Shown piece after piece: positions 21,965 to 47,963 of a stretch of DNA of 64,000 nucleotides. The DNA comes from Candidatus Krumholzibacteriia bacterium (GTDB lineage: Bacteria; Krumholzibacteriota; Krumholzibacteriia; LZORAL124-64-63), in the NCBI GenBank assembly GCA_016744705.1, contig JADGDU010000003.1, forward strand, positions 1 through 64,000, in the 5' to 3' direction. How positions within the stretch are numbered: position 1 is the first letter of the stretch; each line of letters begins with the position of its first letter. The notes under the pieces were generated by a model. The model worked only from the letters and a program-made list of their open reading frames with translations. It did not search any database and was not told the DNA's origin. Made by a program: the position numbers and the translations under genes.

Positions 21965-22219
21965 ATGCCTCTCGTATTAACGGTGAGGTCGTCCCAGGTG
22001 TCACTCCCCAACCTGGCAATTTGGCGGTTTGCGTTACCACTGGCCGTCTTCATAGTGGTTCTGTCTACGATTGCAGCCAATCAACTAAATGGGCCATTGA
22101 TCAGTGGGGCCGTTGCATACAAAGGAATCCTTTGCTTAAGTTTATTACTATTTTTCCGACAACTCATAGTGAACTGGATGGGCTTCGAGCAAATGAGGAG
22201 ACGATCACATGAACATTAA
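21965..22219 (+). CDS. Possible small two-helix membrane protein upstream of the chemoreceptor
   Basis: An 84-codon frame fills most of the otherwise empty 280 bases before the chemoreceptor gene and overlaps its start by 11 bases. The predicted protein has two hydrophobic segments ([20 protein letters not shown] and [19 protein letters not shown]) and a basic end (MRRRSHEH), a plausible topology. No good ribosome-binding site precedes the ATG; a GTG at 21998 inside the frame is preceded by GAGG-like sequence. I recognise no family. It could be a real small gene or chance coding. Confidence 0.35.
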
Positions 22220-24329
22220 TCTATCATTGAAAAGAAAACTCCTGCTGACTGGAATTTTGGTTTCAGTAATTCCCCTGATGATACTCACTACGATTATCAT
22301 CAAGCAGGAAAATCAAATGAAAGAAACTGCCGGCGAAGAATGCCTCGCCCTTGCCTTTGCTGATTTGGACCATATCGCCATGGGAATTACTGCCATGTGC
22401 GAAAGTCAGGAACAAATTCTGCAGCAGAGCATCAACCACGCAGTCAATGTGGCTGAACGCTTGACATCAGACAAAGGCAACCTGAGCATCGCTTCCATAA
22501 TTGAAAGCGACGAAAACATCAACTGGAAGACAGTCAAGCATACCGACGGAAGCACCCTGAATTACCAATTACCCCCAATGCTTCTTGGTGAAAACTGGAT
22601 TGGCCAGAACTTCGACCCCAACGTTTATTCCCCCGTGGTTGACGATGTTCGAGACTTGGTCAATGCCGACTGCACCATCTTCCAACGCATGAACGCCCAG
22701 GGCGACATGATGCGCATCTGCACAAACCTGGTGAAAGATGGTAAACGGCAGCTTGGTACCTACGTGCCGCGCACTAGCGCCGACGGCCACCCCAACCCTG
22801 TTCTGACGGCTGTCTTGGCTGGGCAGGAATATCGCGGACGGGCCACCGTTTTAGGTAAGGCCTCAATCTGCACCTACCGCCCCTTGATGAACGACTCCCG
22901 CGAAGTGATCGGCCTGGTGGCTACGGCCATGCCCATTGAAAACGCCACAGCCCTGCGTCAGTCAATCATCGACACCAAAATCGGTAAGTCCGGTTACGTA
23001 TTCGTCCTCGACTCCAAGGCCAACTATATTATTTCCAAGGACGGCAAGCGAGACGGTGAAAGTCTCTGGGAAGCCAAGGATGCTAACGGGGAGTTTATGG
23101 TCCAGGAAATCTGCGCCATCGCCACGAACCTTGATCAAGGTCAAATCGGCGGTATCACTTATCCCTGGAGCAATGTCGGCGACACGGGCAGCCGTGACAA
23201 GGTCGTGCGTCTGGTGTATTTCGAACCCTGGGACTGGGTCATCGGCGTAGGCTCCTATCAGGACGAATTTGAAGTAGCCAAAGCCAACGTGGCCAAAATC
23301 GGACATCAAAACCAAATAACACTGCTCATTATCTCCGGACTGGCCCTGCTGGCTTCGATCCTGATTTGGTTCTTTGTTTCCCATGGAATTGGCAAGGGCA
23401 TCAGTGGAGTGGTCGGTCAACTGTCTTCGGCCAGCAACCAGGTGACCGCAGCTTCTGATCAGGTCGCCCAAAGCAGTATCCAACTATCTGAGGGTGCCAG
23501 TGAACAAGCCAGTGCCCTGGAAGAAATTTCTGCCTCCTTGGTGGAAATGTCATCTATGACAAACCAGAACGCCGAAACTGCCGTTGAAACCGATTCTCTT
23601 GCAAAAGAATCACTTAAATGGGCCCATGATGGCTCCAAAGTCATGGACAACATGAACGATTCCATTGAGCGAATCAAAACAAGTAGTGATGAAACGGCCA
23701 ATATCCTCAAGACCATCGATGAGATCGCCTTCCAAACCAATCTACTTGCCCTGAATGCCGCCGTAGAAGCTGCTCGGGCAGGAGATGCCGGCAAGGGTTT
23801 TGCTGTGGTTGCCGAAGAAGTTCGCAATCTCGCCGGGCGAAGCGCTGAAGCAGCCAAAAATACATCCGTGCTCATCGATACATCCCAGGAGAATGCTCAG
23901 AAGGGTGTCCAGGCAAGTCAGGAAGTAGGCAGAGTGCTGGACAAGATCGCCGAAGGCATCCAAGGAGTGACCGATTTGATCGGGCAAGTGGCCAATGCCA
24001 GCCGAGAGCAGGCCCAAGGTGTCAGCGAGATCAGCACTGGTGTGGGCCAGCTGGATCAGGTGACTCAATCCACAGCCGCCATGACCGAAGAAACCGCCGC
24101 CGCCGGCGAAGAGCTTAGCGGCCAAGCTTCTGAGCTCAATCAGATGGTTGAAGTGTTGAACGGCATCGTTGAAGGAAATTCGGGCAAGCCCAGCAGGTAT
24201 GAGCTGTCATCGGCCGACACAGCAGAAGTACTTAAACCCAGCCCCGTCTTCACCCCTTCCAAATTCCCGGAGGCCCGTTCGCCAGAGGTAGTCATCCCTT
24301 TGGAGAATGATGATTTTCTAGAAATTTAG
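22209..24329 (+). CDS. Methyl-accepting chemotaxis protein with Cache ligand-binding domain
   Basis: The 706-aa receptor has TM1 at about 10-30 and a periplasmic Cache domain (about 35-365; [33 protein letters not shown] and [14 protein letters not shown] are typical of the Cache_3-Cache_2 type). TM2 is at about 370-392. A cytoplasmic signalling domain follows almost directly, without a clear HAMP. The signalling tip reads [20 protein letters not shown] followed by [20 protein letters not shown]. The C-terminus is extended and acidic (ENDDFLEI). GAGGAG nine bases before the ATG supports the start. It should feed the CheA/CheW array; one CheW-like protein is encoded at 55875. The ligand is unknown. 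The Cache domain is closely related to that of the receptor at 37789. Confidence 0.93.
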
Positions 24330-28341: not shown

Positions 28342-30432
28342 CTAATGTTCAACCTCTTCAGCCGTTTTAGACTGTTCCATTTCCTCATCATGGTCATAGC
28401 AGTAAGTGCCACAGTTTAAACAACGCCCAGCCTCGTACTTGGCATCCTCTTCATCAATGGTCCCTTCCACTTCCTTGAAGGTTCCCAGACGATCTTCCAG
28501 AGAAGCCACCGGTTCATGCACCTTGGGCTTGGGAATCACACCCACAATGGAATCAAAAATGGAATCAGGCACCAGTTCTGTTTGCCGGTGTTCGATGGGT
28601 GGAATTTCTCCCTGGGTCATATAGTAATGGATGGAACGGGCAGCAAACCGACCGGCACCGATGGCATCGACCATCAGAGCCGGGCCAGTGAAACAATCAC
28701 CGCCGGTGAAAATATAAGGCACGTCTGTTTGCAGGGTGTCCTCACTGGCATCAATGGTCGTCCAACGCGTGGTAGGCAGAGTGGGCATGCCATCTTTTTG
28801 CAGGAAGTCCAGGTTGGGCATCTGGCCCACAGCCTCCACCAGTTGTTCGCAAGGTATGATTTCTTCGGACCCGTCCATGGGTATGGGTCTGCGCCGGCCA
28901 CTGGGGTCGGGCTCTCCCAATTCCATCTTGAGAATTTCCAGGCCTTTTAATTGGTTGCCCTCGGTGATAAATCCTTTGGGAGAACACAGAAAACGGAACT
29001 CGATACCCTCTTCTTCGGCTGCCACAATTTCCACTGGGTTGGCAGGCATTTCGTTGCGGCCCCGGCGGTAAACGATGGTCACGGAATCGGCTCCGGCCCG
29101 TAATGAGGTGCGCGCCGCATCAATGGCCGTATTTCCACCACCAATGACAATGACCCGTCCCTTAACTCGCATATCGGGTTCAAACTGGAAATGCTCCAGG
29201 AAACCAATCCCACTGATCACTCCTTCAGGCGAGGTATCTGCAAGACCAAGTTCTCGGTCTCGCCAAGCCCCCACTGCCAGGAAGATTGCGTCGGCACCAT
29301 CAGCTTTCAGGAAATCGAGAGTGAAATCACGGCCCAGTTCCACTTCAGTCCTGGCTTCAATGCCCAACTCAAGGATGCCTTGAATCTCCCAATCCAAAAT
29401 GGCTTTGGGCAACCGGTATTCGGGGATTCCATAACGCAACATGCCGCCCAGGAAGGGCATTTTTTCAAGAATAGTCACGGCATGTCCCAGTCGGCGCAGG
29501 AAGTAGGCTGCACTCAAACCAGCAGGACCACCGCCGATAACCACTACTTTTTTCCCAGTATCCGGAGCCACGGGAACATGCAAGCGTTTCTCCAAGCCCA
29601 TCTCATAATCCGCAGCAAATCGTTTCAGATAGTTGATGGCAACGGGCTCATCTTCAATCTGGCGGCGGCAAGCCAAAGAGCATGGTTCGGGGCACACCCG
29701 GCCAGTACTCAACGCAAGGGGGTTGGTCTCCTTAACCGTCAACAAGGCCAGGTCGTATTCTTCATTCTTGATGTGTTCGATGTATTTGGGGACATTGACC
29801 TGAGCAGGGCATTTTTGCCTGCAGGGGGCCAGGCATTCTGAATAGAGATTCCAATGCAGAATCTTTGTAGTTTCCGAGATGATATTGATGATGCCTTTGG
29901 GGCACGCCCGAACACAGGCACCGCATCCCACACAACGGGTGGGGTCAAAAACCGGCAAGCCCTCAGGTCCCATGGTGATGGCCCCGAACAGGCAGGAGCG
30001 CACGCAGGTTCCCAAGCCCAGGCAACCATGGTTACATTGGATGGGGCCCTGGTACAACAGCATGGCAGCCCGGCAATCATTGAAGCCATCATATTGGTAC
30101 TTGCGAGTGGCCCGGGAGCCTCCCTGGCAATCAGGGCAGGCAATTTGGGGTTCGGTGCCCACCATCTCCATGCCCATAAAAACCGCGATACTGTTGGCCA
30201 CTTCGGTTTGACCAATGACGCAGGCGTTCACTTGGGCTTCTCCGGCAACGATCCCGCCAGCGCATGCAGAGCATCCGGCAAAACCACAACCTCCGCAGTT
30301 GGCACCTGGCAAGAGATCCAAAACACCTTGTATTCGGGGGTCTTCATCCACGTGAAAAACCCGGGCGGCAACGCCCAAACCAACAGCTGAAACAACTGCG
30401 ATTCCACCCAAAACCATGGCCGGTATTAACAT
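28342..30432 (-). CDS. rnfB: RnfB ferredoxin subunit fused to a GltD/NfnB-like FAD-NAD(P)H oxidoreductase
   Basis: The 696-aa protein starts as RnfB: an N-terminal anchor helix (1-24), the 4Fe-4S motif CGGCGFAGC with C46, C49, C54, C71, and two ferredoxin clusters (C133/C137/C143/C147 and C167/C170/C173/C177). Instead of ending there it continues into a GltD-type module. This has its own Fe-S cysteines (C200/C204/C208 and C247/C251/C255), an FAD site VVVIGGGPAGLSAAYFLRR (297-315), and a dinucleotide site VIVIGGGNTAIDAARTS followed by YRRGRNEMPA, a pattern seen in NADPH-linked members. A C-terminal CLNCGTYC could bind another metal. It is the last gene of Rnf operon 1. The fusion suggests that NAD(P)H or NAD(P)+ reacts directly at RnfB. 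Which nucleotide is used, and the electron direction, are inferred. Confidence 0.9.
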   Translation of the reverse strand: MLIPAMVLGGIAVVSAVGLGVAARVFHVDEDPRIQGVLDLLPGANCGGCGFAGCSACAGGIVAGEAQVNACVIGQTEVANSIAVFMGMEMVGTEPQIACPDCQGGSRATRKYQYDGFNDCRAAMLLYQGPIQCNHGCLGLGTCVRSCLFGAITMGPEGLPVFDPTRCVGCGACVRACPKGIINIISETTKILHWNLYSECLAPCRQKCPAQVNVPKYIEHIKNEEYDLALLTVKETNPLALSTGRVCPEPCSLACRRQIEDEPVAINYLKRFAADYEMGLEKRLHVPVAPDTGKKVVVIGGGPAGLSAAYFLRRLGHAVTILEKMPFLGGMLRYGIPEYRLPKAILDWEIQGILELGIEARTEVELGRDFTLDFLKADGADAIFLAVGAWRDRELGLADTSPEGVISGIGFLEHFQFEPDMRVKGRVIVIGGGNTAIDAARTSLRAGADSVTIVYRRGRNEMPANPVEIVAAEEEGIEFRFLCSPKGFITEGNQLKGLEILKMELGEPDPSGRRRPIPMDGSEEIIPCEQLVEAVGQMPNLDFLQKDGMPTLPTTRWTTIDASEDTLQTDVPYIFTGGDCFTGPALMVDAIGAGRFAARSIHYYMTQGEIPPIEHRQTELVPDSIFDSIVGVIPKPKVHEPVASLEDRLGTFKEVEGTIDEEDAKYEAGRCLNCGTYCYDHDEEMEQSKTAEEVEH

Positions 30433-30445
30433 TCAAAACTCCAGA

Positions 30446-31021
30446 TCAGTTGGTCATTCCCACAAAACCCATGAAGGCCAGTGACATGACGCCTGCGGTT
30501 ACCAGGGCAATGGCCGTACCACGCATGGCAATAGGCACCGGTGATATAAACAATCTCTCTCGCACACAGGCGAAGAGGATGATGGCCAGGGCAAATCCTG
30601 AGGCGCTGGCCGCTGAAAAGACCAAAGTCTCAATAAAGCCAAAACCATGTTTGATATTCAAAAGGGCAATACCCATGACAGCACAATTGGTGGTGATCAG
30701 GGGCAGGAAAATTCCCAAAGAATCATAGAGAGCTTTGCTTTGTTTCTTGATGAAGATTTCCACAAACTGAACCAAAGCTGCGATGACCAGAATAAAGACC
30801 AAAGTCTTGAGATATTCCAGGCCCAGGGGCAGCAACAGGTAGTGGTACACAGCCCAGGTCAGGGCGGAAGCCACGGTGGCTACAAAAGTCACAGCGGCGC
30901 CCATACCACTGGCTGTACCCAGCTTCTTGGAGACTCCACAGAAGGGGCAGTTTCCCAAATATTGCGCCAACAGAATGTTGTTGACGAAAATCGCTCCGAA
31001 TGTCAGTAGCAACAGGTCCAT
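30446..31021 (-). CDS. rnfA: Rnf complex subunit A (operon 1)
   Basis: RnfA is a six-helix membrane subunit that, with RnfE, forms the antiporter-like core holding a membrane-embedded Fe-S cluster. The 191-aa protein has the conserved cysteine motifs LGNCPFCGVSKK (about 23-34; the second Cys is extra relative to operon 2) and LITTNCAVMG (about 110). The end is the usual RGTAIALVTAGVMSLAFMGF. It lies 14 bases from both rnfE (upstream) and the RnfB fusion (downstream). The divergence from the operon 2 copy (41198) indicates old paralogues or separate acquisition rather than recent duplication. Confidence 0.93.
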   Translation of the reverse strand: MDLLLLTFGAIFVNNILLAQYLGNCPFCGVSKKLGTASGMGAAVTFVATVASALTWAVYHYLLLPLGLEYLKTLVFILVIAALVQFVEIFIKKQSKALYDSLGIFLPLITTNCAVMGIALLNIKHGFGFIETLVFSAASASGFALAIILFACVRERLFISPVPIAMRGTAIALVTAGVMSLAFMGFVGMTN

Positions 31022-31035
31022 GGGACGCGCCTCTC

Positions 31036-31647
31036 TCAGGTCTGGATGAAAATTTCGCCTCTACGCCGGCTCCAGGCATTCATGAGCCCCAACATCACTC
31101 CCAGGCAAAGAAAAGCACCGGGGGCCTGAACCATAAATCCGAAGGGTTCAAAACTGGCGGGAAAGACGGGCATGCCGAACCAAGTGCCTTGGCCAAGAAT
31201 TTCCCGGATGGAACCTACGACCGTCAATGACATGGTAAAACCCAGTCCCACACTCAGGCCGTCGGCCATGGACAAGTGCACCGGATTGCGGGACGCAAAA
31301 GCTTCGGCCCGGCCCAGGATGATACAGTTCACCACAATCAGCGGGATGTAGATGCCCAACTTCTGGGACAGGGGGAAGAAGTAGGCTTTCATGAACAACT
31401 CCACCAACACCACCAAGGTGGCGATCACCACAATGAAGCTGGCAATGCGCACCTTATTGGGGATCACATTTCGTAGGAGAGAGATGAACATGTTGGAAAA
31501 GATCAATACGAACGTCACAGCCACACCCATGCCCAAGCCGTTCTCAGCCGCCGAGGTGACAGCCAGCGAAGGACACAGTCCCAAGACTAGACGAAAGGGT
31601 GGCAAGTCACGCCAGAGACCATGGGTCAATGTTTGACGAAGGTTCAT
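31036..31647 (-). CDS. rnfE: Rnf complex subunit E (operon 1)
   Basis: This 203-aa membrane protein is homologous to RnfA in fold and pairs with it in inverted topology. Family motifs are present: FRLVLGLCPSLAVTSAAENG near the start (Cys ligand), ISLLRNVIPNKVRI, and PLIVVNCIILGRAEAFASRN (second Cys). The C-terminus reads PPGAF-like as APGAFLCLGVMLGLMNAW. Its start overlaps the rnfG stop by four bases (ATGA), typical of translational coupling. It should help carry ion translocation linked to ferredoxin oxidation. Confidence 0.93.
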   Translation of the reverse strand: MNLRQTLTHGLWRDLPPFRLVLGLCPSLAVTSAAENGLGMGVAVTFVLIFSNMFISLLRNVIPNKVRIASFIVVIATLVVLVELFMKAYFFPLSQKLGIYIPLIVVNCIILGRAEAFASRNPVHLSMADGLSVGLGFTMSLTVVGSIREILGQGTWFGMPVFPASFEPFGFMVQAPGAFLCLGVMLGLMNAWSRRRGEIFIQT

Positions 31648-32267
31648 AAGGTTTGACCTCCAGTAGTTTCATCATCAGAGGACAAACCCAGAATGATAGT
31701 GACAATTTCTTCCTGATGGTCCTGAAGAAGTCGTGCCACCTGATTGGTGCCAGCAACCATTGCATTTGAGGAATATGTGGCTCCCGTGATGGCATCCAGC
31801 TGGCCTCCATTGGATATCAGAGCCACGGAATGATCCAGGATCACACCGTTCCACTGCCGACGAAAACTTTCCAGCTCCACTTTGGCGCCTACGCCAGGGG
31901 TTTCGCTGTGGCTGACGATCTCCACACCGATAACAGAGCTGTTGCGTGGATCCAATCCGACCATGAATACGATATCTCCCCCGTATCCTCCCTGGCCCAC
32001 CGCCTCCACGGCCAATCCTGTCACTTCACCGGCTTCACGCCGATAAAAGATGGGGAAATCGTGATCCTCTGCGGCGTAGGTCAATTTCTCTGAAAGCATG
32101 TCCTCGGCTGGCTGTTGAAACAGTCGTTCGAGAGCGGGGCCCCGGACATAAAAATCCTCTTGCATTTCAATGCGTTCTGCCAAATTGGTGCGCACAAAGG
32201 AGAGGGCTCCAGCGCTGAAGGAGCAAATGGTTCCCAGAACAAGGACCAGTCGAAAAATCTCACCCAT
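31644..32267 (-). CDS. rnfG: Rnf complex subunit G, covalent-FMN subunit (operon 1)
   Basis: The 207-aa protein has one N-terminal membrane helix (about 5-25) and a periplasmic FMN-binding domain. The flavinylation motif DAITGATYSS is intact, so ApbE can attach FMN to its Thr, and the upstream SHSETPGVGAKVE matches the family. ApbE is encoded at 46249 in the same window. In this operon RnfG is the only subunit that keeps a flavinylation site, which makes it the likely flavin partner of the periplasmic multiheme cytochrome. It overlaps rnfD by eight bases upstream and rnfE by four downstream. Confidence 0.93.
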   Translation of the reverse strand: MGEIFRLVLVLGTICSFSAGALSFVRTNLAERIEMQEDFYVRGPALERLFQQPAEDMLSEKLTYAAEDHDFPIFYRREAGEVTGLAVEAVGQGGYGGDIVFMVGLDPRNSSVIGVEIVSHSETPGVGAKVELESFRRQWNGVILDHSVALISNGGQLDAITGATYSSNAMVAGTNQVARLLQDHQEEIVTIILGLSSDDETTGGQTL

Positions 32268-33240
32268 TTTTCGAAACCTCCAGTCCCACCACCGGTGGGG
32301 TCATGCGGTCCATCAGGGGACTGCTGATGTTGGCCAAAAGGACGGCAAAAATGACGCCATCGGTGTGGCTCGAAAAAGTCCGGATAAGGACCAACAAAGA
32401 TCCGATTAACAGACCATAAAGAATCATGGGCCAGGGATTAACCGGAGACGTGGTATGTTCGGGAGCTAGGAAAAAAGCCAGGAGAATCGTACTGCCAGCC
32501 AAAAGATGAAACAGCGGTGTGGCCGCACGGTCGCCAGCCAACCATTGCAGGAGCAGAGCAGTAACCACCACCCCCACGAGACAGCTCAGAGGAATTTGCC
32601 AGGGTACTTGCCGGGCCACTACCAGACAGAGTCCACCAATCAACAACCAAAGCACCATGGCGTTGCCGACTCCACCAATCTGTTTACCCAGCAGGAGGTC
32701 CAGAAAGTTATATTGGGATTCGGCGCCAACACCCAGAGTTTTGACCAGGCGCATAGGCTCGATCATGGTGACAGACCATGTTTTGCCCACCAGGGAAGCG
32801 GTATAATCCAGCCTTGAAGGCCAGGAAACCAACAGCATGGCATAACCAAGAGCCACGGGGTGCACGGGATAGGCGCCCCATCCACCATAAAGTTTCTTAC
32901 CGAAGATAATAGTGAGAAAAGCTCCCACGGTGACCAACCACCAGGGGGCTCCCACGGGCAATAGCAGCGCCAAGAGCACACCAAGAGAGACACTGCTGAA
33001 ATTGGATGCGTGGTCTTTGTTTTCTACGAAATGGTTCCAAACCACTTCAGCTACCACCGAGGCGGTGACCGCCAGAGCGATGACTCGCAGAGATGCCATT
33101 CCAAAAATGACGGTGCTGGCGATGATGGTTGGCAACAAAGCCAAAAGCCAGCTCCACTGGATTCCTGGCAAGGTGCTTCCATCGTGCCAGTGAGGACTGG
33201 CAGCAACATTGTATTTCACACGTTCATTGGCAGGATTCAT
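32260..33240 (-). CDS. rnfD: Rnf complex subunit D (operon 1), lacking the flavinylation threonine motif
   Basis: The 326-aa polytopic protein matches RnfD through YNVAASPHWH at the start, FSSVSLGVLLALLLPVGAPWW, FGKKLYGGWGAYPVHPVALGY, PLFHLLAGSTILLAFF and the end NISSPLMDRMTPP. In canonical RnfD a loop carries [ST]GATPL, where FMN is esterified; operon 2 has DAATGATPLG at the equivalent place. Here the loop reads WSVTMIEPMRLVKTLG and no [ST]GAT is found anywhere in the protein. It therefore probably lacks covalent FMN. The rest of the fold is retained, so the gene is not decayed. Confidence 0.92.
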   Translation of the reverse strand: MNPANERVKYNVAASPHWHDGSTLPGIQWSWLLALLPTIIASTVIFGMASLRVIALAVTASVVAEVVWNHFVENKDHASNFSSVSLGVLLALLLPVGAPWWLVTVGAFLTIIFGKKLYGGWGAYPVHPVALGYAMLLVSWPSRLDYTASLVGKTWSVTMIEPMRLVKTLGVGAESQYNFLDLLLGKQIGGVGNAMVLWLLIGGLCLVVARQVPWQIPLSCLVGVVVTALLLQWLAGDRAATPLFHLLAGSTILLAFFLAPEHTTSPVNPWPMILYGLLIGSLLVLIRTFSSHTDGVIFAVLLANISSPLMDRMTPPVVGLEVSKNG

Positions 33241-33241
33241 C

Positions 33242-34540
33242 TCATTGGCTCCCGTTTTGACAGGCCAGTTTGATCAGTTGCAAAAGCGGCCGGTGGGCGG
33301 GGCATACGAAAGCGCAGAGACCGCATTCCAGACAGGCTTCAGGATGGTACTGGGCGGCTTCATTGATCCAGTCGAACTCGACGTTGCGCCCAATCAAATG
33401 GATTTGAAGATTGACCGGACAAGCCTGGGTGCAGCGCCCACAATTGATACAGGTTTGATTCACATCAGAGATGACTTTTCGGGCCCTCTGCACATGGATA
33501 CCTGCCTGGAATTTACTCAAAGGAGTATCCAGGGTGAATTGGGCCGTGCCCGCCATAGGGCCACCCATGATAACGCGATCGCCTTCTTCCAGTGACAAAC
33601 CCTGGCTGGCCAACAGGTCGCCAATAGAGGTTCCAATGGAAGCTCGCACGGTTTTGGGCGTAAATCCGTCGTCAGTGGAGATGGTCAGGGCTTTCCGGAT
33701 GCAGGGTTGCCCCTCCAGGGCCCGGTACATATCCAGTAACTGTTCGGCGGAGATAACCGCAATTCCAAAAGAACGGTAGGATGCACGGCTGGGGACCGTG
33801 GTTCCGGTCAAGCGGCCCATGGCTGGTCGTTCGATGCGGCCCCGATAGTCATCGGGCATCGGAGTCACTTCAGCTAGATCGGAAAACATTTCCCTGGCCC
33901 ACTGCTTGTCCTTTTTGCAAACCGTCAGCCGGATGCGGGCTTGGGGAAGAATTTCCGCCAACCGCTGCAGAGCACTTTTCATCTCTTCAGTGTGAGCCCT
34001 CATCAAGGTGTGAAAGCTACAGATGGTGGGTTCCTGATTGAGGCCTTTTATGACAATCTGGGTAATATCCGGGTAGTTTTCGATATCAATTTCACTGTCA
34101 TCCCGCCCGGGTGTTGTCCAGGGTGAGACAACTCCGGCGGCCCGCAAAAGGTCCACTCGACTGGCGGACTGGGGATCAATGCCACATTCCCGAAGGATTT
34201 CTTCTTTGCCCAAAGAATGATTGGCGCCTTTTTTGATCACTACCGCCGGTACATGGAAACCACGAGCGGACCAAACTGACTTTAATTCCGTCACCGTTCC
34301 ACTGATGGAAGCATGGATGAAATTTCCCATTTCCGATTGGCCAATGATCTGGTTCTGGGCCACTTCATCGCCCCCTTCAACCAGGGGCCGGAAAAGGATT
34401 TGGCCGGGGTACTCCAGGGGGATAACCACCTGGTCTGGTTCGGGCAGCTCGACGATTCCAGGTGTGCATTCAATACCCTTGGGAACCCTCAAGGCAGGTA
34501 CTTTAAAACAATCCAGGACACTCATGACCGTTCCTTTCAC
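33242..34540 (-). CDS. rnfC: Rnf complex subunit C (operon 1), with lost NADH/FMN motifs
   Basis: The 432-aa protein has the RnfC architecture: an N-terminal barrel-sandwich (VVIPLEYPGQILFRPLVEGG), a central Rossmann-like domain, a SLBB region (ISTDDGFTPKTVRASIGT) and two 4Fe-4S clusters (CINCGRCTQACP and CLECGLCAFVCP). In ordinary RnfC the nucleotide/FMN motifs are GLGGAxFPT and NGAECEPYLT, both present in operon 2. Here the same positions read AAGVVSPWTTP and KGLNQEPTICS. NADH oxidation by this subunit is therefore doubtful. It follows the cytochrome gene directly (stop-to-start gap of three bases when ATG 34540 is used; ATG 34525 is an alternative with a closer match to family length). Confidence 0.92.
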   Translation of the reverse strand: MKGTVMSVLDCFKVPALRVPKGIECTPGIVELPEPDQVVIPLEYPGQILFRPLVEGGDEVAQNQIIGQSEMGNFIHASISGTVTELKSVWSARGFHVPAVVIKKGANHSLGKEEILRECGIDPQSASRVDLLRAAGVVSPWTTPGRDDSEIDIENYPDITQIVIKGLNQEPTICSFHTLMRAHTEEMKSALQRLAEILPQARIRLTVCKKDKQWAREMFSDLAEVTPMPDDYRGRIERPAMGRLTGTTVPSRASYRSFGIAVISAEQLLDMYRALEGQPCIRKALTISTDDGFTPKTVRASIGTSIGDLLASQGLSLEEGDRVIMGGPMAGTAQFTLDTPLSKFQAGIHVQRARKVISDVNQTCINCGRCTQACPVNLQIHLIGRNVEFDWINEAAQYHPEACLECGLCAFVCPAHRPLLQLIKLACQNGSQ

Positions 34541-34543
34541 ATC

Positions 34544-35182
34544 TCAGATCAGATGACAGGATTTGCATATGGCCTCGCCCTGGTCGTTGATAAAACGCTC
34601 GGGTTCTTCGCCGCGATGACAAGCTGTGCATTCCAGGTGGTAAATTTCTCCAATGGGGCCCGGTTGGTGGCAACCCGTGCAACTGTGGTCTTCCAATTCC
34701 TGCAGCTCCTGGTGCGTAAAATCTTCCACAACGTAGTCGGGATCATCATGGCATTGCTGGCAATTGGCCGCATCGATTTCCGGTTCGGATCCGGTGGTGA
34801 ATGCTGGATGACAGTGGCGACAACTGCGCGCCTCAGAATCAGGCAGGAGATCATGGCAATCCAGGCAACTGTGATCCTCGACCTCGACGATTTCCTCATG
34901 GGAATAATCATCAATGGTGTATTCCGGCTCGTCATGGCAATCACTGCAGTCCACGGCGTCGGTCTGGATCAAAGCGTGGTGGCATGATACGCATTTTGTA
35001 TCATGTTGCTGGTGAGCGGCGTGAGTAAAAAGAACCGCTCCTCCGGCATTGTCCAGATAGAACTGGTCACCAGTGGCTGGCGGGTCCGGCTGCAAATACC
35101 CGTAAATGGATAGCACCGCAGCGACCAGAAACAAAAGAGTTAATGGCCTGTTTGGGGATGGGAATTCTTTTCCGAATAACAC
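34544..35182 (-). CDS. Membrane-anchored octaheme c-type cytochrome of Rnf operon 1
   Basis: From the GTG at 35182 the protein has 212 aa, with one N-terminal hydrophobic helix (LTLLFLVAAVLSIYGYL) acting as a signal anchor, and eight CxxCH haem-binding sites: CVSCH, CSDCH, CLDCH, CRHCH, CQQCH, CTGCH, CTACH and CKSCH. Additional histidines supply distal ligands, as in class III and NrfH/cytochrome c7-like proteins. The GTG is chosen because GGAGTGG precedes it and it lies four bases after the upstream stop. A multiheme cytochrome directly before rnfCDGEAB is also found in Methanosarcina (MmcA) and Desulfovibrio, where it takes electrons from Rnf to quinone-like or periplasmic acceptors. Confidence 0.9.
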   Translation of the reverse strand: MLFGKEFPSPNRPLTLLFLVAAVLSIYGYLQPDPPATGDQFYLDNAGGAVLFTHAAHQQHDTKCVSCHHALIQTDAVDCSDCHDEPEYTIDDYSHEEIVEVEDHSCLDCHDLLPDSEARSCRHCHPAFTTGSEPEIDAANCQQCHDDPDYVVEDFTHQELQELEDHSCTGCHQPGPIGEIYHLECTACHRGEEPERFINDQGEAICKSCHLI

Positions 35183-35186
35183 CTTG

Positions 35187-35660
35187 TCACCACTCCATGC
35201 TGTCGTCGAGGAGGATTTTGTGTTCGTCGTTGAGGTCGATTGTGTGCCAGGTACAACCGGTGCGCATACAGAAATAGAAAGGAACACGGACTGAGGAAAT
35301 GCCTACCATAATGCAGGCCACATGGGAGTCGCCCCTGTCGCACTTTCGGTCTCCTGCGCGTAAGGAGGTATGGCATTGCCAACATCGGATATCATGAACC
35401 TCTTCCCCCTCGGCGAGTTTGAGATTGCTTTTCCGTTCGAAGGCGTTGAGATAAGGACAGAGCTCTACCCAGCCGGGCTCATCATCAGCGCTTAATGTCT
35501 CCAGGTGGATCCCATTGTTTTTCATCAAACTGAGAGAACAGTAGGGACAATAGCAATTCAGGTATGAGCCGGACTTTAAGACTGTCCGATTGTTGAAATT
35601 GTGCTCATCCCAGACGATTTTTTCCCAGCTGTCTTTTTGGTTGGGTTTTTCGTTATCCAT
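35187..35660 (-). CDS. Cysteine-rich zinc-ribbon-like protein heading Rnf operon 1
   Basis: This 157-aa soluble protein is not a family I recognise. It holds three cysteine clusters: CYCPYC, RCWQCH and FCMRTGC, plus DRKCDRGD, spaced as in two zinc ribbons or Fe-S sites. CWQCH formally matches a haem motif, but there is no signal peptide and it is likely metal binding. The ATG at 35660 is preferred over 35705 because AAGGGGA lies upstream. It is the first gene of the operon, four bases before the cytochrome gene, so it could be an assembly factor, redox sensor or ferredoxin-like partner for the complex. Confidence 0.7.
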   Translation of the reverse strand: MDNEKPNQKDSWEKIVWDEHNFNNRTVLKSGSYLNCYCPYCSLSLMKNNGIHLETLSADDEPGWVELCPYLNAFERKSNLKLAEGEEVHDIRCWQCHTSLRAGDRKCDRGDSHVACIMVGISSVRVPFYFCMRTGCTWHTIDLNDEHKILLDDSMEW

Positions 35661-35784
35661 ACGAGTCCCCTTTATTATGCATATGCTCAATTGCTCTTCT
35701 GACAAATGATAGGGGCTGGAAATCCCAAAAACAAGCTAAACCATTGATTTAAATGACCTTAATTCATATTGGGATGATAGGACT

Positions 35785-37788: not shown

Positions 37789-40101
37789 ATGTTTTTATTA
37801 CGTTCTGTGCGTACACGTTTGATTGCGATGAGTTTAACCCTGGTTTTAATACCATTGGCAGTTGTGTTGGGGGTTTCAGTCAACCAACAGCACCAATCGG
37901 CCAAAATCGCTGGCCAGGAATGCCAGAAACTCAATCTGGAAGCACTGGACACCATCGCTCATACGGTTTTTGATATCTGCGAGACACAAAACGAAATTCT
38001 GCAGAGTATGGTGGACTCCGGCCTGAAAGTGACAAAATCCGAACTGTCACGAGCAGGAGAGTTGCGCGAAGAAAAGGATGTTGTGACTTGGCAGGCGACC
38101 AACCAATACACCAAAAAAGCTGCGGCCATTGAACTGCCCCGCATGGTGGCCGGTGATACCTGGCTGGGGAAGAATTCCCTGGGCAATGTTCCTTCACCCA
38201 TTGTGGATGAAGTACGGGCTCAATTGGGCGGCACCTCTACCATCTTCCAGCGCATGAATGATGCCGGAGATATGCTACGAGTGTGCACCAACGTCTTGAA
38301 GAAAGACGGCACCCGGGCCATCGGCACTTATATTCCCGCCACCAACCCGGACGGCAAAGCCAACCCAGTGATTGCCAAGGTATTGCGCGGCGAAACATTT
38401 CGCGGTCGAGACTTTGTTGTTGACCGCTGGTATCTCACAGCCTACGAACCCGTGAAAGATTCTCGGGGTAACGTCATGGGCATTAGCTACTTTGGCATTC
38501 CCATGGAAACCGCCGAAAATATGCGTAAAACCATCACTGACTTTGTGATTGGAGAAACTGGCTATGTTTTTGTTCTCAACGGGGCCGGTGAATACATCAT
38601 CTCCAAGGATAGCAAACGGGATGGCGACAAACTCTGGAATGTGAAGGATGCTGACGGCAATTACTTCATCCAGGAAATAGTCGAAGGTGCAAAAGCTGGA
38701 AACGCCAAGGAAACTTACAAACAGCAATACATGTGGCAAACTGCTGGCAGTCAGACGCCACAGGAAAAAGTAGTGCACTGTTTATACTATGAACCGTGGG
38801 ATTGGGTCATTGGCGCCAGCAGTCTCCTGGAAGAATTCCGCGAAGCGGAACACAGGATCGAAGCCAATGGCAAACGGGCCAACACCCTGTTAATCTTCTT
38901 GGTCTTAGTGGCCGGTGTAAGTGCCGGTCTTGCCGCATGGTTTATGAGCACACGCATCACCAACCCCCTGGTTCGCGCCGTAGCCGTGGCAGACGCCGTT
39001 GCCAATGGTGATCTCTCCCACCGTTTGAACAATCATCAAAAAGATGAAGTGGGAGATCTGGCTCGAGCTTTGGATCGCATGAGCGCAGGACTGCAAGTCA
39101 AAGCCGACGAAGCCAAAGCCATTGCCGATGGCGACTTGACGGTGGACGTCAAAGTGGGTGGCTCCATGGATTCCTTTGGAAACGCCATCAAAAATATGGC
39201 CACCAAATTGCGCAGTGATTTGAACCAGGTGAAAACCACCGCCGACCAGGTCAGCACCGGTGCCGGCGAAGTCTCCCAGGGTAGCTTGAGTCTGTCTCAA
39301 GGCGCCACCGAACAGGCCGCATCATTGCAGGAAATCAGCAGCAGCATGACGGAATTGGCCAGCCAGGTTAAAACCAACGCAGACCATGCCAACGAAGCCG
39401 ACCGGTTAACCGATGACGCTTCCGTGGCTGGTAACGAAGGTCTGGAGAGCATGGGGCAAATGACCAGGGCCATGACGGAAATCAACGCCGGCAGTGAAGA
39501 GATTGCCAAGATTATCAAAGTGATCGATGACATTGCCTTCCAAACCAACCTGTTGGCCCTGAATGCTGCGGTGGAGGCCGCCCGTGCAGGCAAGCACGGA
39601 AAGGGATTTGCTGTGGTGGCCGAAGAGGTGCGCAGCCTGGCTGGCCGCAGCGCCAAAGCCGCCCGTGAAACGGCCCACCAAATTGAAGGCTCATTGAGCA
39701 AGGTGAACGAGGGATCCAAAATCGCTGCCGAAACAGCTTTGGCCCTGGAAAACATTGTTGGCGGCTTGGACAAAGCGTCTGACCTTGTGCGGGAAATTGC
39801 CAAAGCCAGCACCGATCAAGCCCGAGGCATTTCCGAAGTCACCGAAGGCCTGGGCCAAATCGACACAGTCACTCAAAACAACTCGGCCAGTAGCGAAGAA
39901 ATGGCCTCGGCCTCCCAGCAATTGCGTGGCCAGGCTGAAGAACTGCAAGTTCTACTGGGCCGATTCCGCTTGGACAGCACCACCGTTTCAGCCCGCAACA
40001 ACCGAGAAGCGGAGCAACAGGCAGTGGCCACCGCCAGCCAGCTTGCTGACATCATGCAACCGGAAGAATTGACCTCCCCAGCAGGCAGTTGGGGCAATTA
40101 A
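37789..40101 (+). CDS. Methyl-accepting chemotaxis protein with Cache domain and HAMP
   Basis: The 770-aa receptor has TM1 (about 10-28) and a Cache_3-Cache_2 ligand domain (about 35-360; [51 protein letters not shown]). TM2 is at about 366-386, followed by a HAMP ([20 protein letters not shown]) and a second HAMP-like segment ([14 protein letters not shown]). The signalling hairpin contains [20 protein letters not shown] and [20 protein letters not shown]. No CheR-binding pentapeptide ends the protein. AAGGGGA lies eight bases before the ATG. It is the sister of the receptor at 22209, with which it shares the ligand domain but not the HAMP, so the two may sense related ligands. A terminator follows the gene. 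Confidence 0.93.
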
Positions 40102-40286: not shown

Positions 40287-40925
40287 ATGAATCGATCGCA
40301 CCTGATGATGGTTATTGTCTTGCTTTTGGCCACAGTGGCGCTGTCCGCCTGCAACGACCAAGGACCTTCTGAACTAGACCAATTGGCTTCTTTGATGACT
40401 GGCTCTTTCAGTAGCCAGGCCCAGGCAGAAGCCGATACAAATTTTTTTGACATCCGCTTGGAAATGGTTCCCATCTGGCAGGACAAAGTCGAACCGGGCC
40501 AGGGCCGTTACCTGTATGTGGAACAAGCCGCTGGCTGGACTCTCGACAAACCTTATCGCCAAAGAGTTTATCATGTGACCGATGCCGGTGACGGTGTATT
40601 CAGCAGCATGGTCTACGCTTTGCCCGACCCTGAGGCCGCCATCGGCGCCTGGAAGCTGGATACCCCCCTTGCTGACCTCAACCCTGCGGACTTGATTGAA
40701 CGGGAAGGCTGCGCCGTCTATCTGAGCAAACATCCCGACGGCACCTATCAGGGTTCCACCCGGGAAAAAGAATGCACCAGCACCATGCGCGGGGCCACTT
40801 ACGCCACCAGCATCATCACCATCGCCAATGACCAGGTCTTAAGCTGGGACCAGGGCTGGAATGACGAAGGAGAGCAAGTCTGGGGTGCAGAGATCAGTGG
40901 CTATGTGTTTTTGAGGATTCAATAA
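40287..40925 (+). CDS. CpeT/CpcT-family lipoprotein
   Basis: The 212-aa product starts with a lipoprotein signal (lipobox LSAC, Cys22). The rest follows the CpeT/CpcT (DUF1001) family: QLASLMTGSFSSQAQAEAD, RYLYVEQAAGW, KPYRQRVYHV, REGCAVYL, GSTREKECTSTMRGATYAT and LSWDQGWNDEGEQVWG. In cyanobacteria relatives attach bilins to phycobiliproteins. Here there are no phycobiliproteins, so it more likely binds another tetrapyrrole or hydrophobic ligand in the envelope; that is inference. AAGGAG six bases before the ATG supports the start. The gene is monocistronic, between a terminator and two hairpins. Confidence 0.85.
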   Translation: MNRSHLMMVIVLLLATVALSACNDQGPSELDQLASLMTGSFSSQAQAEADTNFFDIRLEMVPIWQDKVEPGQGRYLYVEQAAGWTLDKPYRQRVYHVTDAGDGVFSSMVYALPDPEAAIGAWKLDTPLADLNPADLIEREGCAVYLSKHPDGTYQGSTREKECTSTMRGATYATSIITIANDQVLSWDQGWNDEGEQVWGAEISGYVFLRIQ

Positions 40926-45555: not shown

Positions 45556-46265
45556 GTTACGCACAAACCTTTACCCGTGGCTTCTGGAAGGAAAATCCTA
45601 TTTTCCGTCTGCTGCTGGGGTTGTGCCCCACCCTCGCGGTGACCACCAGTGTAGAGAACGGCATCGGCATGGGACTGGCTTCCACCTTCGTTCTCATTTG
45701 CAGCAACGTGATGATTTCTCTTTTACGGAATTTCATCCCCAAAAAAGTACGCATTCCAGCCTACATCGTGGTCATTGCGTCCTTTGTGACCATCGTTGAT
45801 CTGGCGATGCATGCCTGGTTCTTCGAATTGCACAAAAGCCTGGGGCTGTTCATCCCCCTGATTGTGGTGAACTGCATTATTCTTGGGCGGGCCGAAGCGT
45901 TTGCCAGCCGGAATCCATTGCCTTTGGCTTTGGTCGACGGTGTAGGCATGGGTCTGGGTTTCACTCTCGGGTTGGCTGTTCTGGGTGGTGTTCGGGAAAT
46001 CTTTGGTTCCGGTAGCCTTTTGGGCTTTTCCGTCTTTGGTCCCAGCTATCCCCCCGCCTTAGTGATGATCCTGCCCCCCGGAGCTTTCCTCACCCTGGGA
46101 TTCCTCTTGGCGGGCATGAACCGCCTGGAAGAGAAACGGGCCATCAGAGCCGGCGAAACTTACAGCCCACCCCGTGAAATGGATTGCGGCAGCTGTGTTC
46201 TGTGCAAGCTGGATGAGAACATTTCTCAGATGGATGCAGAGGATTCCGTCAGTCCGGAAAAATAA
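45552..46265 (+). CDS. rnfE: Rnf complex subunit E (operon 2)
   Basis: The 237-aa subunit has six membrane helices with FRLLLGLCPTLAVTTSVENG and PLIVVNCIILGRAEAFASRN (Cys ligands of the membrane Fe-S centre with RnfA). It is about 30 residues longer than the operon 1 copy because of a C-terminal cytoplasmic tail containing DCGSCVLCKLDEN, whose three cysteines (CxxCxxC) could bind metal. It is the last gene of the operon and overlaps the convergent apbE gene by 17 bases, so no terminator hairpin separates them. Confidence 0.94.
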   Translation: MSYAQTFTRGFWKENPIFRLLLGLCPTLAVTTSVENGIGMGLASTFVLICSNVMISLLRNFIPKKVRIPAYIVVIASFVTIVDLAMHAWFFELHKSLGLFIPLIVVNCIILGRAEAFASRNPLPLALVDGVGMGLGFTLGLAVLGGVREIFGSGSLLGFSVFGPSYPPALVMILPPGAFLTLGFLLAGMNRLEEKRAIRAGETYSPPREMDCGSCVLCKLDENISQMDAEDSVSPEK

Positions 46266-47340
46266 TCTGGTATTGGTCTTCAAAGCCAGGTAGCAATTTC
46301 AACCGGCCACGCAATCCCGGCGTGGCCCTGACGGTATCCATGCCCTCGTTTATTCCCGGTACCACCAGCACCACTTCCACATCAGGATAATAAGCGTCTA
46401 AAAAATCCCATGCGGCATCTGGTCCCAGGACAAAGAGAGTGGTCGACAGCCCGTCTGCCAGAATCCCCTCATGGGCAATCACCGAAGCGCTCAGTAAACC
46501 TTCTGCCGGTCGCCCTGTAGCCGGATTCATGATGTGACCATAGCGATGGCCATCAATAGTCACAAAGCGTTCGTAAGAGCCGCTGGTGGCCACTGAAGCT
46601 TCGCTGATGGTGACAGTGGCAAAAAGCTCGTCGCGGTTGCGCGGGTTTCTAATGCCGACACGCCAATCCTCCCTATCGGGCGCCCCGCCCAGGCAATACA
46701 GGTTGCCCCCTAAATCCAGCAAACCATCCTTCACTCCGGCTTTTCTTAACCGGGCCACAGCCAGATCAACAGCCAAACCTTTGGCGATCCCACCCAGATC
46801 AAAATGAGTTCCCGGCTTCTCTTTGACAACCAATGCGGGGTTACCCTCCAGTCGCCACTTCCCCAGATCGGCCAAGGCAGAGTCCAGGGCCGTGGTTGAG
46901 GGTAAAACACCCTTCCGGCGATAGAATCCCCATAAGCGCATCAGCCTCTCGGCGGTGGGATCAAAAGCTCCGCCACTTTGTTCATGAAGCTTCAACGATC
47001 TTGTCAGGCAGGTTCGCAACAGAGGGGATAGGTTCACTGCGGAATCCGCGGCTGCCCTGCTCAATCGGCTAATTTCTGAATCAGGAGACCATGTGCTTAA
47101 TGCTGTGTTCACTTCGGCAAAAGAGTCTTCAACAATTCCGATGGCTTTCTCGGCCGGTAGGTCCGTTGGGAGCATGAGCCGTAAGGAGGCCACGGTGCCC
47201 ATGGTTTCAAAACTGAACTGGCATTCTTCTGTCTCCTGGCCGCAGCCGGACAGAATTAAGAACAGAAGGAAGCTTCCAGCCAAAAGAACAAATCCGACAC
47301 TCTTTGAGGCTGGCCTGAAGTCGGTGGTTTGCTTTTTCAT
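46249..47340 (-). CDS. apbE: FAD:protein FMN transferase ApbE (lipoprotein)
   Basis: ApbE splits FAD and links FMN to Thr in [ST]GAT motifs of RnfD/RnfG. From the ATG at 47340 the 363-aa protein has a lipoprotein signal (LSGC), the ETMGTVASL start motif, HFDLGGIAKGLAVD, GLLDLGGNLY, TSGSYERF and HIMNPATGRPAEG, then ADGLSTTLFVLG with the Mg2+-binding Asp. GGAGGAG lies immediately upstream of the start; a much longer in-frame extension to 47574 lies inside the neighbouring gene and is rejected. It overlaps the LysE-like gene by four bases upstream and thus belongs to the headgroup-like operon transcriptionally, while functionally serving Rnf. Confidence 0.95.
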   Translation of the reverse strand: MKKQTTDFRPASKSVGFVLLAGSFLLFLILSGCGQETEECQFSFETMGTVASLRLMLPTDLPAEKAIGIVEDSFAEVNTALSTWSPDSEISRLSRAAADSAVNLSPLLRTCLTRSLKLHEQSGGAFDPTAERLMRLWGFYRRKGVLPSTTALDSALADLGKWRLEGNPALVVKEKPGTHFDLGGIAKGLAVDLAVARLRKAGVKDGLLDLGGNLYCLGGAPDREDWRVGIRNPRNRDELFATVTISEASVATSGSYERFVTIDGHRYGHIMNPATGRPAEGLLSASVIAHEGILADGLSTTLFVLGPDAAWDFLDAYYPDVEVVLVVPGINEGMDTVRATPGLRGRLKLLPGFEDQYQIIFPD

Positions 47341-47963
47341 ACTCCTCCAAAAAAGTATGTAACGATGGCAGTAACAATCAGTAACAGCCCCATACCCCGC
47401 ATGATCCATTGGATTTTTTCGGGACCAAATCTGGTACGGTAGGTATCCAGAAGTTTGAGCAAAAGAGCAAACCACGCGACGATGCCCAAAGCCACTCCAG
47501 TAACAAAAATCCAGGGGGAAGCCGTTTCTGGGTGGAAACCCAGGCCCACCGCCACAGTCAGCAAAGCCAACCAATTCAAAGGCACCGAAATGTTGCCGCC
47601 CACCAGAGAAAAACCCAACCAGAAATCGCGCCCATAGTTTGCTGTGGCCAGAGTATCCTCATCCACAGGCAGAGCAGAAGATTTACGAGTCAGGAAAAAG
47701 AGCCCCAGAGCCAGGAGAATAATTGCGCCTACCACCTTGGCGATGCCTTCGGCAGCTGGCCAACGGGTCATGATTTGTTCAGCGCCCAACATAGCAACCA
47801 AACACCAAAGGGCCTCGGCTACAGCGGCGCCCACAGAGAGTGAAAGTCCAGCTTTCAGTCTCCCGGACAAACCTCGTTGGAAGACAAAAATCGAAACAGC
47901 ACCAGCAATGGGCATGGAACCAACCCAACCCAAAACAAACCCTGCCGCCAAATGAGTGATCAT
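47337..47963 (-). CDS. LysE/RhtB-type membrane transporter-like protein
   Basis: The 208-aa protein has six predicted helices and begins like the LysE family (HLAAGFVLGWVGSMPIAGAVSIFVFQRGL, matching the usual GxxxGxxPGPxxxxxxxxG pattern with substitutions), with the two halves separated by a hydrophilic loop (about 94-112). It probably exports a small amino- or phospho-compound. It overlaps genes on both sides by four bases, so it is cotranslated with the nucleotidyltransferase and apbE. Its substrate may be linked to the preceding headgroup-like genes; that is inference. Confidence 0.72.
   Translation of the reverse strand: MITHLAAGFVLGWVGSMPIAGAVSIFVFQRGLSGRLKAGLSLSVGAAVAEALWCLVAMLGAEQIMTRWPAAEGIAKVVGAIILLALGLFFLTRKSSALPVDEDTLATANYGRDFWLGFSLVGGNISVPLNWLALLTVAVGLGFHPETASPWIFVTGVALGIVAWFALLLKLLDTYRTRFGPEKIQWIMRGMGLLLIVTAIVTYFFGGV

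What the first reader, a model, noticed from the sequence alone, without database searches (positions are those of the whole stretch)
28342..30432. RnfB-GltD/NfnB fusion with at least five predicted Fe-S sites plus FAD
One chain carries RnfB clusters (C46-C71, C133-C147, C167-C177), a GltD-type N-terminal Fe-S region (C200-C255), FAD and dinucleotide sites and a C-terminal cysteine quartet. This is a covalent wire from ferredoxin to NAD(P)H. The nucleotide motif GGGNTAIDAARTS...YRRGRNEMPA is typical of NADPH-linked GltD-type enzymes, unlike the NADH of ordinary Rnf. Bifurcation is conceivable but not shown.
Basis: partly seen in the sequence, partly recalled or inferred. Interest (0 to 1): 0.65.

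Follow-up and report, generated by a model that had tools for sequence, protein, structure and literature searches.

The report
Electron-pump subunit fused to NADPH flavoenzyme
A bacterial membrane electron pump (an "Rnf2"-type Rnf complex) carries its NAD(P)H-handling enzyme fused onto subunit RnfB, while the usual NADH site on RnfC and a flavin anchor on RnfD are gone, so it probably connects NAD(P)H to a periplasmic multiheme cytochrome rather than ferredoxin to NADH; the type is known from sulfate reducers but its chemistry has never been tested.

Summary
The fusion is real: 696 aa on the minus strand (28342-30432), with the same architecture in six related genomes. It is the last gene of an operon: 8-heme cytochrome c, rnfC, D, G, E, A, rnfB::GltD. 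An ordinary rnf operon lies 11 kb away. The architecture is published: it is the "Rnf2"/Tol2-type complex of Desulfobacteraceae (about 700-aa RnfB, RnfC without its NADH domain), mechanism unverified. Here it sits in another, single-class phylum, probably by horizontal transfer (sister to Desulfopila, support 100). New from this work: in this class not only the RnfC FMN/NADH motif but also the RnfD residue that anchors FMN (A. woodii Thr156; Glu161 here) is lost, while the RnfG flavin site and the RnfA/E cluster cysteines stay. Methanosarcina Rnf, which feeds a multiheme cytochrome and not NAD, shows the same losses independently. The GltD module also replaces RnfB's outermost ferredoxin module. 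So "ferredoxin-to-NAD(P)H wire" is probably the wrong reading: NAD(P)H sits at the pump's input side and electrons most likely leave, or enter, through RnfG and the cytochrome. The "C-terminal quartet" is three cysteines; C200 and C675 replace each other exactly across homologues, marking one junction site. Cluster distances could not be measured.

The parts
28342..30432 (-). rnfB::gltD fusion gene, 696 aa
   Evidence: conserved in six related genomes
30358..30432 (-). N-terminal membrane helix of RnfB (residues 1-25)
   Evidence: hydropathy, AF2 helix 2-25
30217..30312 (-). FdI domain (residues 41-72; C46 C49 C54 C71), the mobile cluster that reaches RnfA/E in solved Rnf
   Evidence: PF04060; 7zc6_B/9eri_B alignment
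29887..30045 (-). FdII domain, two [4Fe-4S] (residues 130-182; C133 137 143 147 / 167 170 173 177)
   Evidence: Fer4 models; invariant cysteines
29599..29841 (-). GltD-type Fe-S helical domain (residues 198-278; C200 204 208 247 251 255)
   Evidence: PF14691
28612..29553 (-). FAD + NAD(P) Rossmann domains (residues 294-607)
   Evidence: PF07992; fold match to NfnABC/StnABC chains
29035..29145 (-). NADP(H) motif GGGNTAIDAARTS...VYRRGRNEMPA (residues 430-466)
   Evidence: PMC6405883
28399..28422 (-). C-terminal cysteines C671 C674 C678 (RCLNCGTYC), permuted counterpart of the N-terminal RCx2C of NfnB
30446..31021 (-). rnfA (C25, C113 of the membrane [2Fe-2S] kept)
   Evidence: TIGR01943 above cut-off
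31036..31647 (-). rnfE (C25, C108 kept)
   Evidence: TIGR01948 above cut-off
31644..32267 (-). rnfG (covalent-FMN motif DAITGAT kept)
   Evidence: NF045876 best hit, 160 bits, below cut-off
32260..33240 (-). rnfD; FMN threonine replaced (TGATPL -> TMIEPM, Glu161), riboflavin N->H and D->E
33242..34540 (-). rnfC without FMN/NADH motif (GLGGAxFPTHVK and NGAECEPYLT lost), two [4Fe-4S] motifs kept
34544..35287 (-). membrane-anchored octaheme cytochrome c, 8 CxxCH; true start probably near 35194
   Evidence: HmcA model E=5e-11; PF14522/PF14537
41162..46265 (+). ordinary rnfABCDGE operon with all canonical motifs (built-in control)
46249..47574 (-). ApbE-like flavin transferase reading frame (upstream end uncertain)
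   Evidence: sequence; homologues lie next to the fusion in relatives L009-L011

Best explanation
The ORF is the RnfB subunit of an Rnf2 (Tol2-type) complex. Its GltD/NfnA-like module holds FAD and binds NAD(P)H, most likely NADPH; its Fe-S clusters and the RnfB clusters carry single electrons between that FAD and the mobile FdI cluster, which exchanges electrons with the membrane [2Fe-2S] of RnfA/RnfE and the covalent FMN of RnfG on the periplasmic side. In ordinary Rnf the electron then returns through RnfD (FMN, riboflavin) and RnfC (2x[4Fe-4S], FMN) to NAD+. Here the RnfC FMN/NADH site and the RnfD FMN anchor are gone, so the periplasmic partner is most likely the co-encoded octaheme cytochrome c. 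The complex would be an ion-translocating NAD(P)H:cytochrome c oxidoreductase, reversible, with NQR-like polarity (pyridine nucleotide at the input side). Shown here: the fusion, the operon, the intact and lost motifs, one clade. Inferred: NADP preference, the electron path, the cytochrome as partner, the direction, ion pumping.
For: Operon and domains. FAD and NADP motifs intact in almost all operon fusions of this kind. RnfC: all canonical RnfCs in the set keep GxGGAxFP/ECEP; the operon-linked fusions readable at that site do not, although both 4Fe-4S motifs stay. RnfD: every canonical operon (about 40) has T/N/D at the FMN-threonine and riboflavin positions; about 22 of 24 class members have lost the threonine. 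RnfG TGAT/SGAT kept; RnfA and RnfE cysteines kept. Built-in control: the ordinary operon in the same window has all sites. Independent parallel: Methanosarcina loci L071/L078 (5-heme cytochrome upstream) show the same losses, and that Rnf reduces cytochrome/methanophenazine, not NAD(P) (PMC4023990). A 4-10-heme cytochrome precedes most members. RnfB homology ends at residue 191-192, where solved RnfBs continue with their ferredoxin-docking modules. In a tree of RnfA+E+D the class is one clade, support 100.
Against: RnfC keeps both [4Fe-4S] motifs in every member, which suggests it still handles electrons. Losing the RnfD threonine does not prove that the flavin is absent; it could bind non-covalently. 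Two Desulfarculales-type members (L031, L033) keep the threonine and have no cytochrome beside the operon. The loss happened only twice on the tree, so the link with a cytochrome cannot be tested statistically (too few independent pairs). Two rnf operons (L037, L044) carry a fusion whose NADP motif is itself degenerate, and in Desulfopila YRR reads FRF. In D. alaskensis, mutants in the cytochrome gene next to rnf showed no fitness effect on ethanol, formate or H2 (PMC4841214), although that Rnf was not shown to be of this fused type. L130 (Desulfotignum) pairs a motif-less RnfC-like protein with an intact RnfD.
Confidence: 0.5

Rival explanations
1. Ion-pumping oxidoreductase with both partners cytoplasmic: NAD(P)H at the RnfB/GltD end and ferredoxin (or another one-electron protein) at the two exposed [4Fe-4S] clusters of RnfC; the cytochrome is a side branch.
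For: RnfC keeps both 4Fe-4S motifs in all members; riboflavin Asn is kept in the Desulfobacula/Desulfamplus members; the literature describes Rnf2 as linking NADH, ferredoxin and NADP pools (PMC11887813).
Against: RnfD FMN threonine lost in nearly all members; in the window clade the riboflavin Asn is also changed (N to H). The polarity is unfavourable: flow from RnfB through RnfA/E to RnfG exports the ion in A. woodii (PMC11889175), which an endergonic NADPH-to-ferredoxin reaction cannot drive.
Confidence: 0.2
2. One reading: ferredoxin donates to RnfB clusters and the fused GltD domain reduces NADP+ directly, a membrane-tethered ferredoxin:NADP+ reductase with or without pumping.
For: FdII clusters lie between the mobile FdI and the GltD module; NfnB itself is predicted to dock ferredoxin near its distal cluster (PMC6405883).
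Against: GltD sits where the ferredoxin-docking modules are in solved RnfBs; such a direct route would bypass the pump; it does not explain the coordinated loss of RnfC/RnfD flavin sites or the conserved cytochrome.
Confidence: 0.15
3. Flavin-based bifurcation: NADPH oxidised at the GltD FAD sends one electron down the Fe-S chain to low-potential acceptors and the other to a second acceptor.
For: Nearest solved relatives are chains of bifurcating NfnABC/StnABC.
Against: No NfnA-type [2Fe-2S]/FAD partner in the operon; many relatives of these domains (GltD, DPD) do not bifurcate.
Confidence: 0.08
4. The fused GltD domain is non-catalytic, an Fe-S scaffold, and ferredoxin is the cytoplasmic donor as in Methanosarcina.
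For: A sister clade of fusions, including two in rnf operons (L037, L044), has lost the NADP motif and the second FAD motif.
Against: In the window and in six related genomes the motifs are intact as far as each sequence reaches.
Confidence: 0.07

Closest known systems
Rnf2 (Tol2-type Rnf) of Desulfobacteraceae: Desulfobacula toluolica, Desulfococcus multivorans (PMC5109826; PMC11887813)
   Same: About 700-aa RnfB with NAD-binding sites, RnfC without the NADH domain; in D. multivorans a second, ordinary rnf cluster lies nearby, as here.
   Different: Here in a different phylum; octaheme instead of tetraheme cytochrome; the loss of the RnfD FMN threonine was not found described in the papers read.
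Desulfovibrionaceae rnf operons described as having 'lost rnfB' and gained an 'FAD-dependent oxidoreductase' (PMC11434368)
   Same: Ten-heme cytochrome plus rnf plus a terminal FAD oxidoreductase; in Pseudodesulfovibrio MC-06 and Salidesulfovibrio that terminal gene is this fusion.
   Different: The paper reads it as replacement of RnfB; the sequences here show RnfB retained and fused.
Methanosarcina acetivorans Rnf with multiheme cytochrome c (PMC4023990)
   Same: Cytochrome gene in the operon, RnfC without FMN/NADH motif, RnfD threonine region lost, RnfG FMN motif kept (Methanosarcina loci L071, L078).
   Different: Plain RnfB fed by ferredoxin, no pyridine nucleotide site.
Na+-NQR
   Same: Pyridine nucleotide and FAD on the mobile input subunit (NqrF); RnfC counterpart NqrA lost its cofactors.
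   Different: NqrF is an FNR-type fusion, not GltD; NqrB keeps its FMN threonine; the acceptor is a quinone.
NfnABC / StnABC (9bov, 9n5u, 8oh5)
   Same: Closest fold and sequence of the GltD module; the same C-terminal RCLxCG cysteines.
   Different: Soluble bifurcating complexes without RnfB or a membrane part.

Membership tests
Rnf2 / Tol2-type Rnf complex | about 700-aa RnfB with NAD(P)-binding domain | tested here: met
   696 aa, Pyr_redox_2
Rnf2 / Tol2-type Rnf complex | RnfC without FMN/NADH-binding domain function | tested here: met
   both motifs lost, 4Fe-4S kept
Rnf2 / Tol2-type Rnf complex | phylogenetic grouping with the sulfate-reducer Rnf2 membrane core | tested here: met
   one clade, support 100, RnfA+E+D
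Rnf2 / Tol2-type Rnf complex | formed as a complex in the cell | not testable with these tools
   proteomic evidence exists only for Desulfobacteraceae (PMC11887813)
canonical Rnf (ferredoxin:NAD+ oxidoreductase) | RnfC FMN/NADH site | tested here: not met
canonical Rnf (ferredoxin:NAD+ oxidoreductase) | RnfD covalent-FMN threonine | tested here: not met
   Glu161 at the A. woodii T156 position
canonical Rnf (ferredoxin:NAD+ oxidoreductase) | RnfG FMN threonine and RnfA/E cysteines | tested here: met
Nfn bifurcating transhydrogenase | NfnB-like FAD/NADP module with two [4Fe-4S] | tested here: met
Nfn bifurcating transhydrogenase | NfnA-type [2Fe-2S]/FAD partner | tested here: not met
   none encoded in the operon

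The most novel reading that the evidence does not exclude
The whole class (large-RnfB Rnf2 plus the cytochrome-linked archaeal Rnf) runs half of the U-shaped Rnf circuit: electrons cross the membrane once, through RnfA/E to RnfG, and are handed to or taken from a periplasmic multiheme cytochrome, with NAD(P)H on RnfB. If so it would be an ion-pumping NADPH:cytochrome c oxidoreductase, a reaction not assigned to any characterised Rnf/NQR enzyme that I know of.
Probability: 0.45. Interest if true: 0.7.

Novelty: new member of a known kind. Interest (0 to 1): 0.5.

Why it matters
Rnf2 is reported as core-genome and abundantly formed in Desulfobacteraceae, which dominate carbon oxidation in marine sediment (PMC11887813), yet its reaction is unknown and it is usually modelled as ferredoxin:NAD. 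The coordinated loss of RnfC and RnfD flavin sites, repeated in Methanosarcina, gives a concrete, testable reason to reassign it to NAD(P)H:cytochrome c and would change energy budgets for sulfate reducers. It also gives a sequence rule (RnfC GGAxFP, RnfD ATP threonine) for telling NAD-linked from cytochrome-linked Rnf in genomes.

Tried and rejected
Assembly artefact or chance ORF rejected (orthologues). Plasmid search gave only partial GltD hits. The idea that all fused RnfBs in the genome scan belong to rnf operons was rejected: most of L034-L066 show no rnf genes on the fetched stretch and have lost the NADP motif. A statistical test of cytochrome versus RnfC loss has too few independent events. 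The taxonomic name of the window genome was not obtained; 80 held genomes in its phylum, all of one class, and a subtilase with a secretion-type C-terminal tail argue against Desulfobacterota.

Full report
What is there. The minus strand of 28342-30432 holds one open frame of 696 codons (the plus-strand reading is interrupted by stops). Pfam finds, in order, the RnfB FeS domain, two Fer4 modules, Fer4_20 and Pyr_redox_2; NCBIfam gives RnfB above its cut-off and, for residues 195-683, the NAD(P)-binding GltD-like subfamilies PRK12771 and PRK12814, below theirs. The gene ends an operon read on the minus strand: octaheme cytochrome c, rnfC, rnfD, rnfG, rnfE, rnfA, rnfB::gltD. A second, ordinary rnfABCDGE operon on the plus strand starts 11 kb further along, followed by an ApbE-like reading frame on the other strand. 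The fusion is in 7 of 38 genomes of the same family (counting this one) and in none of the 42 other genomes of the phylum that are held.

Checking the cysteines. Residues C46/49/54/71 form the FdI cluster; C133/137/143/147 and C167/170/173/177 form two FdII clusters. The GltD part belongs to the NfnA/StnC subfamily: the best PDB matches are NfnABC (9bov, 9n5u) and StnABC (8oh5), by sequence and by fold. In ordinary NfnB the first cluster motif RCx2C is at the N-terminus (PMC6405883); here the matching segment (query 635-675 against residues 6-46 of P. furiosus NfnI-L) is at the C-terminus. So C671/C674 are part of the GltD clusters. Left over are C102, C120, C200 and C678. Across 46 fusions with complete ends, C200 and C675 exclude each other: 42 have C200 only, 4 have C675 only, none has both or neither. 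The four C675 rows fall in two separate places of the domain tree (L028; L135/L137/L138). This is what two alternative ligands of one cluster would do, and suggests a sixth cluster at the RnfB-GltD junction. This is inference from conservation; no structure supports it yet.

What the GltD module replaced. Homology to solved RnfBs (9eri, 7zc6) runs through residues 1-192 only. In those structures the chain continues with further ferredoxin modules, and ferredoxin docks at the cluster end farthest from the membrane (PMC9588780, PMC11889175). The GltD module takes that place. Hence NAD(P)H, rather than ferredoxin, is the natural partner of the RnfB end.

The other end of the circuit. In solved Rnf the electron passes RnfB, the RnfA/E [2Fe-2S], RnfG FMN, RnfD FMN (on Thr156 in A. 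woodii) and riboflavin (Asn123, Asp249), RnfC clusters and FMN, then NAD+. I aligned RnfC, RnfD and RnfG of all fetched operons. All RnfCs with the FMN/NADH motif pair with an RnfD that has Thr, Asn and Asp at those places (about 40 operons, including the ordinary operon of this window). RnfCs of the fused class lack GxGGAxFP and ECEP, and their RnfDs have Glu, Tyr, Ala, Asp, Asn, Ser, Ile or Pro in place of Thr; only L031 and L033 keep it. In the window the changes are T to E (Glu161), N to H and D to E. RnfG keeps its FMN motif in nearly every row where that region is on the contig, and the cluster cysteines of RnfA (C25, C113) and RnfE (C25, C108) are kept. One outlier, L130 (Desulfotignum), pairs an RnfC-like protein without the motif with an intact RnfD.

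An independent parallel. Methanosarcina loci L071 and L078 show the same losses and a 5-heme cytochrome upstream. Their Rnf type does not reduce NAD or NADP and passes ferredoxin electrons toward the cytochrome and methanophenazine (PMC4023990). On a tree of concatenated RnfA, E and D the fused class, with the unfused L068 and L157, is one clade (support 100) and the window clade is sister to Desulfopila (100); the motif-less RnfC state needs two changes on the tree, the second being Methanosarcina. With two events the link cannot be tested statistically, and I do not claim that it is.

Explanation. I think the complex is an ion-translocating NAD(P)H:cytochrome c oxidoreductase with the pyridine nucleotide on RnfB, as in NQR it is on NqrF. 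Two arginines of the YRR motif fit NADP(H). Direction is open: NADPH to cytochrome would export ions; periplasmic low-potential electrons to NADP+ would consume the gradient. The chief difficulty is that RnfC keeps both [4Fe-4S] motifs everywhere, so a cytoplasmic partner at RnfC is not excluded.

What is known already. Large RnfB with NAD-binding sites plus an RnfC without NADH domain was reported for Desulfobacula toluolica and as Rnf2 of Desulfococcus multivorans, where a mode of action different from the classical Rnf is said to await experimental verification (PMC5109826), and Rnf2 as core genome of Desulfobacteraceae (PMC11887813). A 2024 study of Desulfovibrionaceae describes the same layout as loss of rnfB and gain of an FAD-dependent oxidoreductase (PMC11434368); the Desulfovibrionaceae loci fetched here show RnfB retained and fused. 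A recent Rnf/NQR review has no mention of fused RnfB or NADPH by term search. I did not find the RnfD threonine loss described in the papers read; subscription papers, the original D. toluolica paper and supplementary texts were not available to me.

Verdict. Real, well conserved, functionally interesting, but a new member of a published kind; the added value is the RnfD loss, the Methanosarcina parallel, the C200/C675 exchange and the occurrence in another phylum.

Noticed in passing
L034-L066 (for example L040:9941-11995, L060:10001-12055): A sister clade of membrane-anchored RnfB-GltD fusions in Desulfobacterota, mostly without rnf genes nearby, that keeps the Fe-S cysteines but has lost the NADP motif and the second FAD motif. 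In L040 it sits between NuoE/NuoF-like genes and an RseC-like gene.
   Followed up: partly
L156:5858-7657 (Desulfofervidaceae genome G065): A soluble 599-aa version (FdII + GltD, no membrane helix, no FdI) beside sucCD, a 2-oxoacid:ferredoxin oxidoreductase and a fumarate reductase/succinate dehydrogenase-like pair, while rnfB of the same genome is plain.
   Followed up: partly
L164:4708-7093 (own genome, contig C87): A third, orphan RnfB without other rnf genes on the 12-kb stretch, directly upstream of a pyridine nucleotide-disulfide oxidoreductase-like FAD protein.
   Followed up: no
window 40287-40925: A CpeT/CpcT family protein (PF06206, E=1.7e-43), a family known from phycobiliprotein lyases, in front of the ordinary rnf operon.
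   Followed up: no
window 35187-35705 (-): A cysteine-rich 172-aa protein without any Pfam match directly upstream of the cytochrome gene; a similar reading frame seems to precede the cytochrome in relatives L158 and L159.
   Followed up: no
window 22209-24329 and 37789-40101: Two methyl-accepting chemotaxis receptors with similar sensor regions flank the Rnf2 operon.
   Followed up: no
own genome contig C68, L002 and L171: A 1231-aa NfnA/StnC-like and a 608-aa frame with an RnfC/NuoF-like stretch lie together, so the genome probably also has a soluble NfnABC/StnABC-type complex.
   Followed up: no
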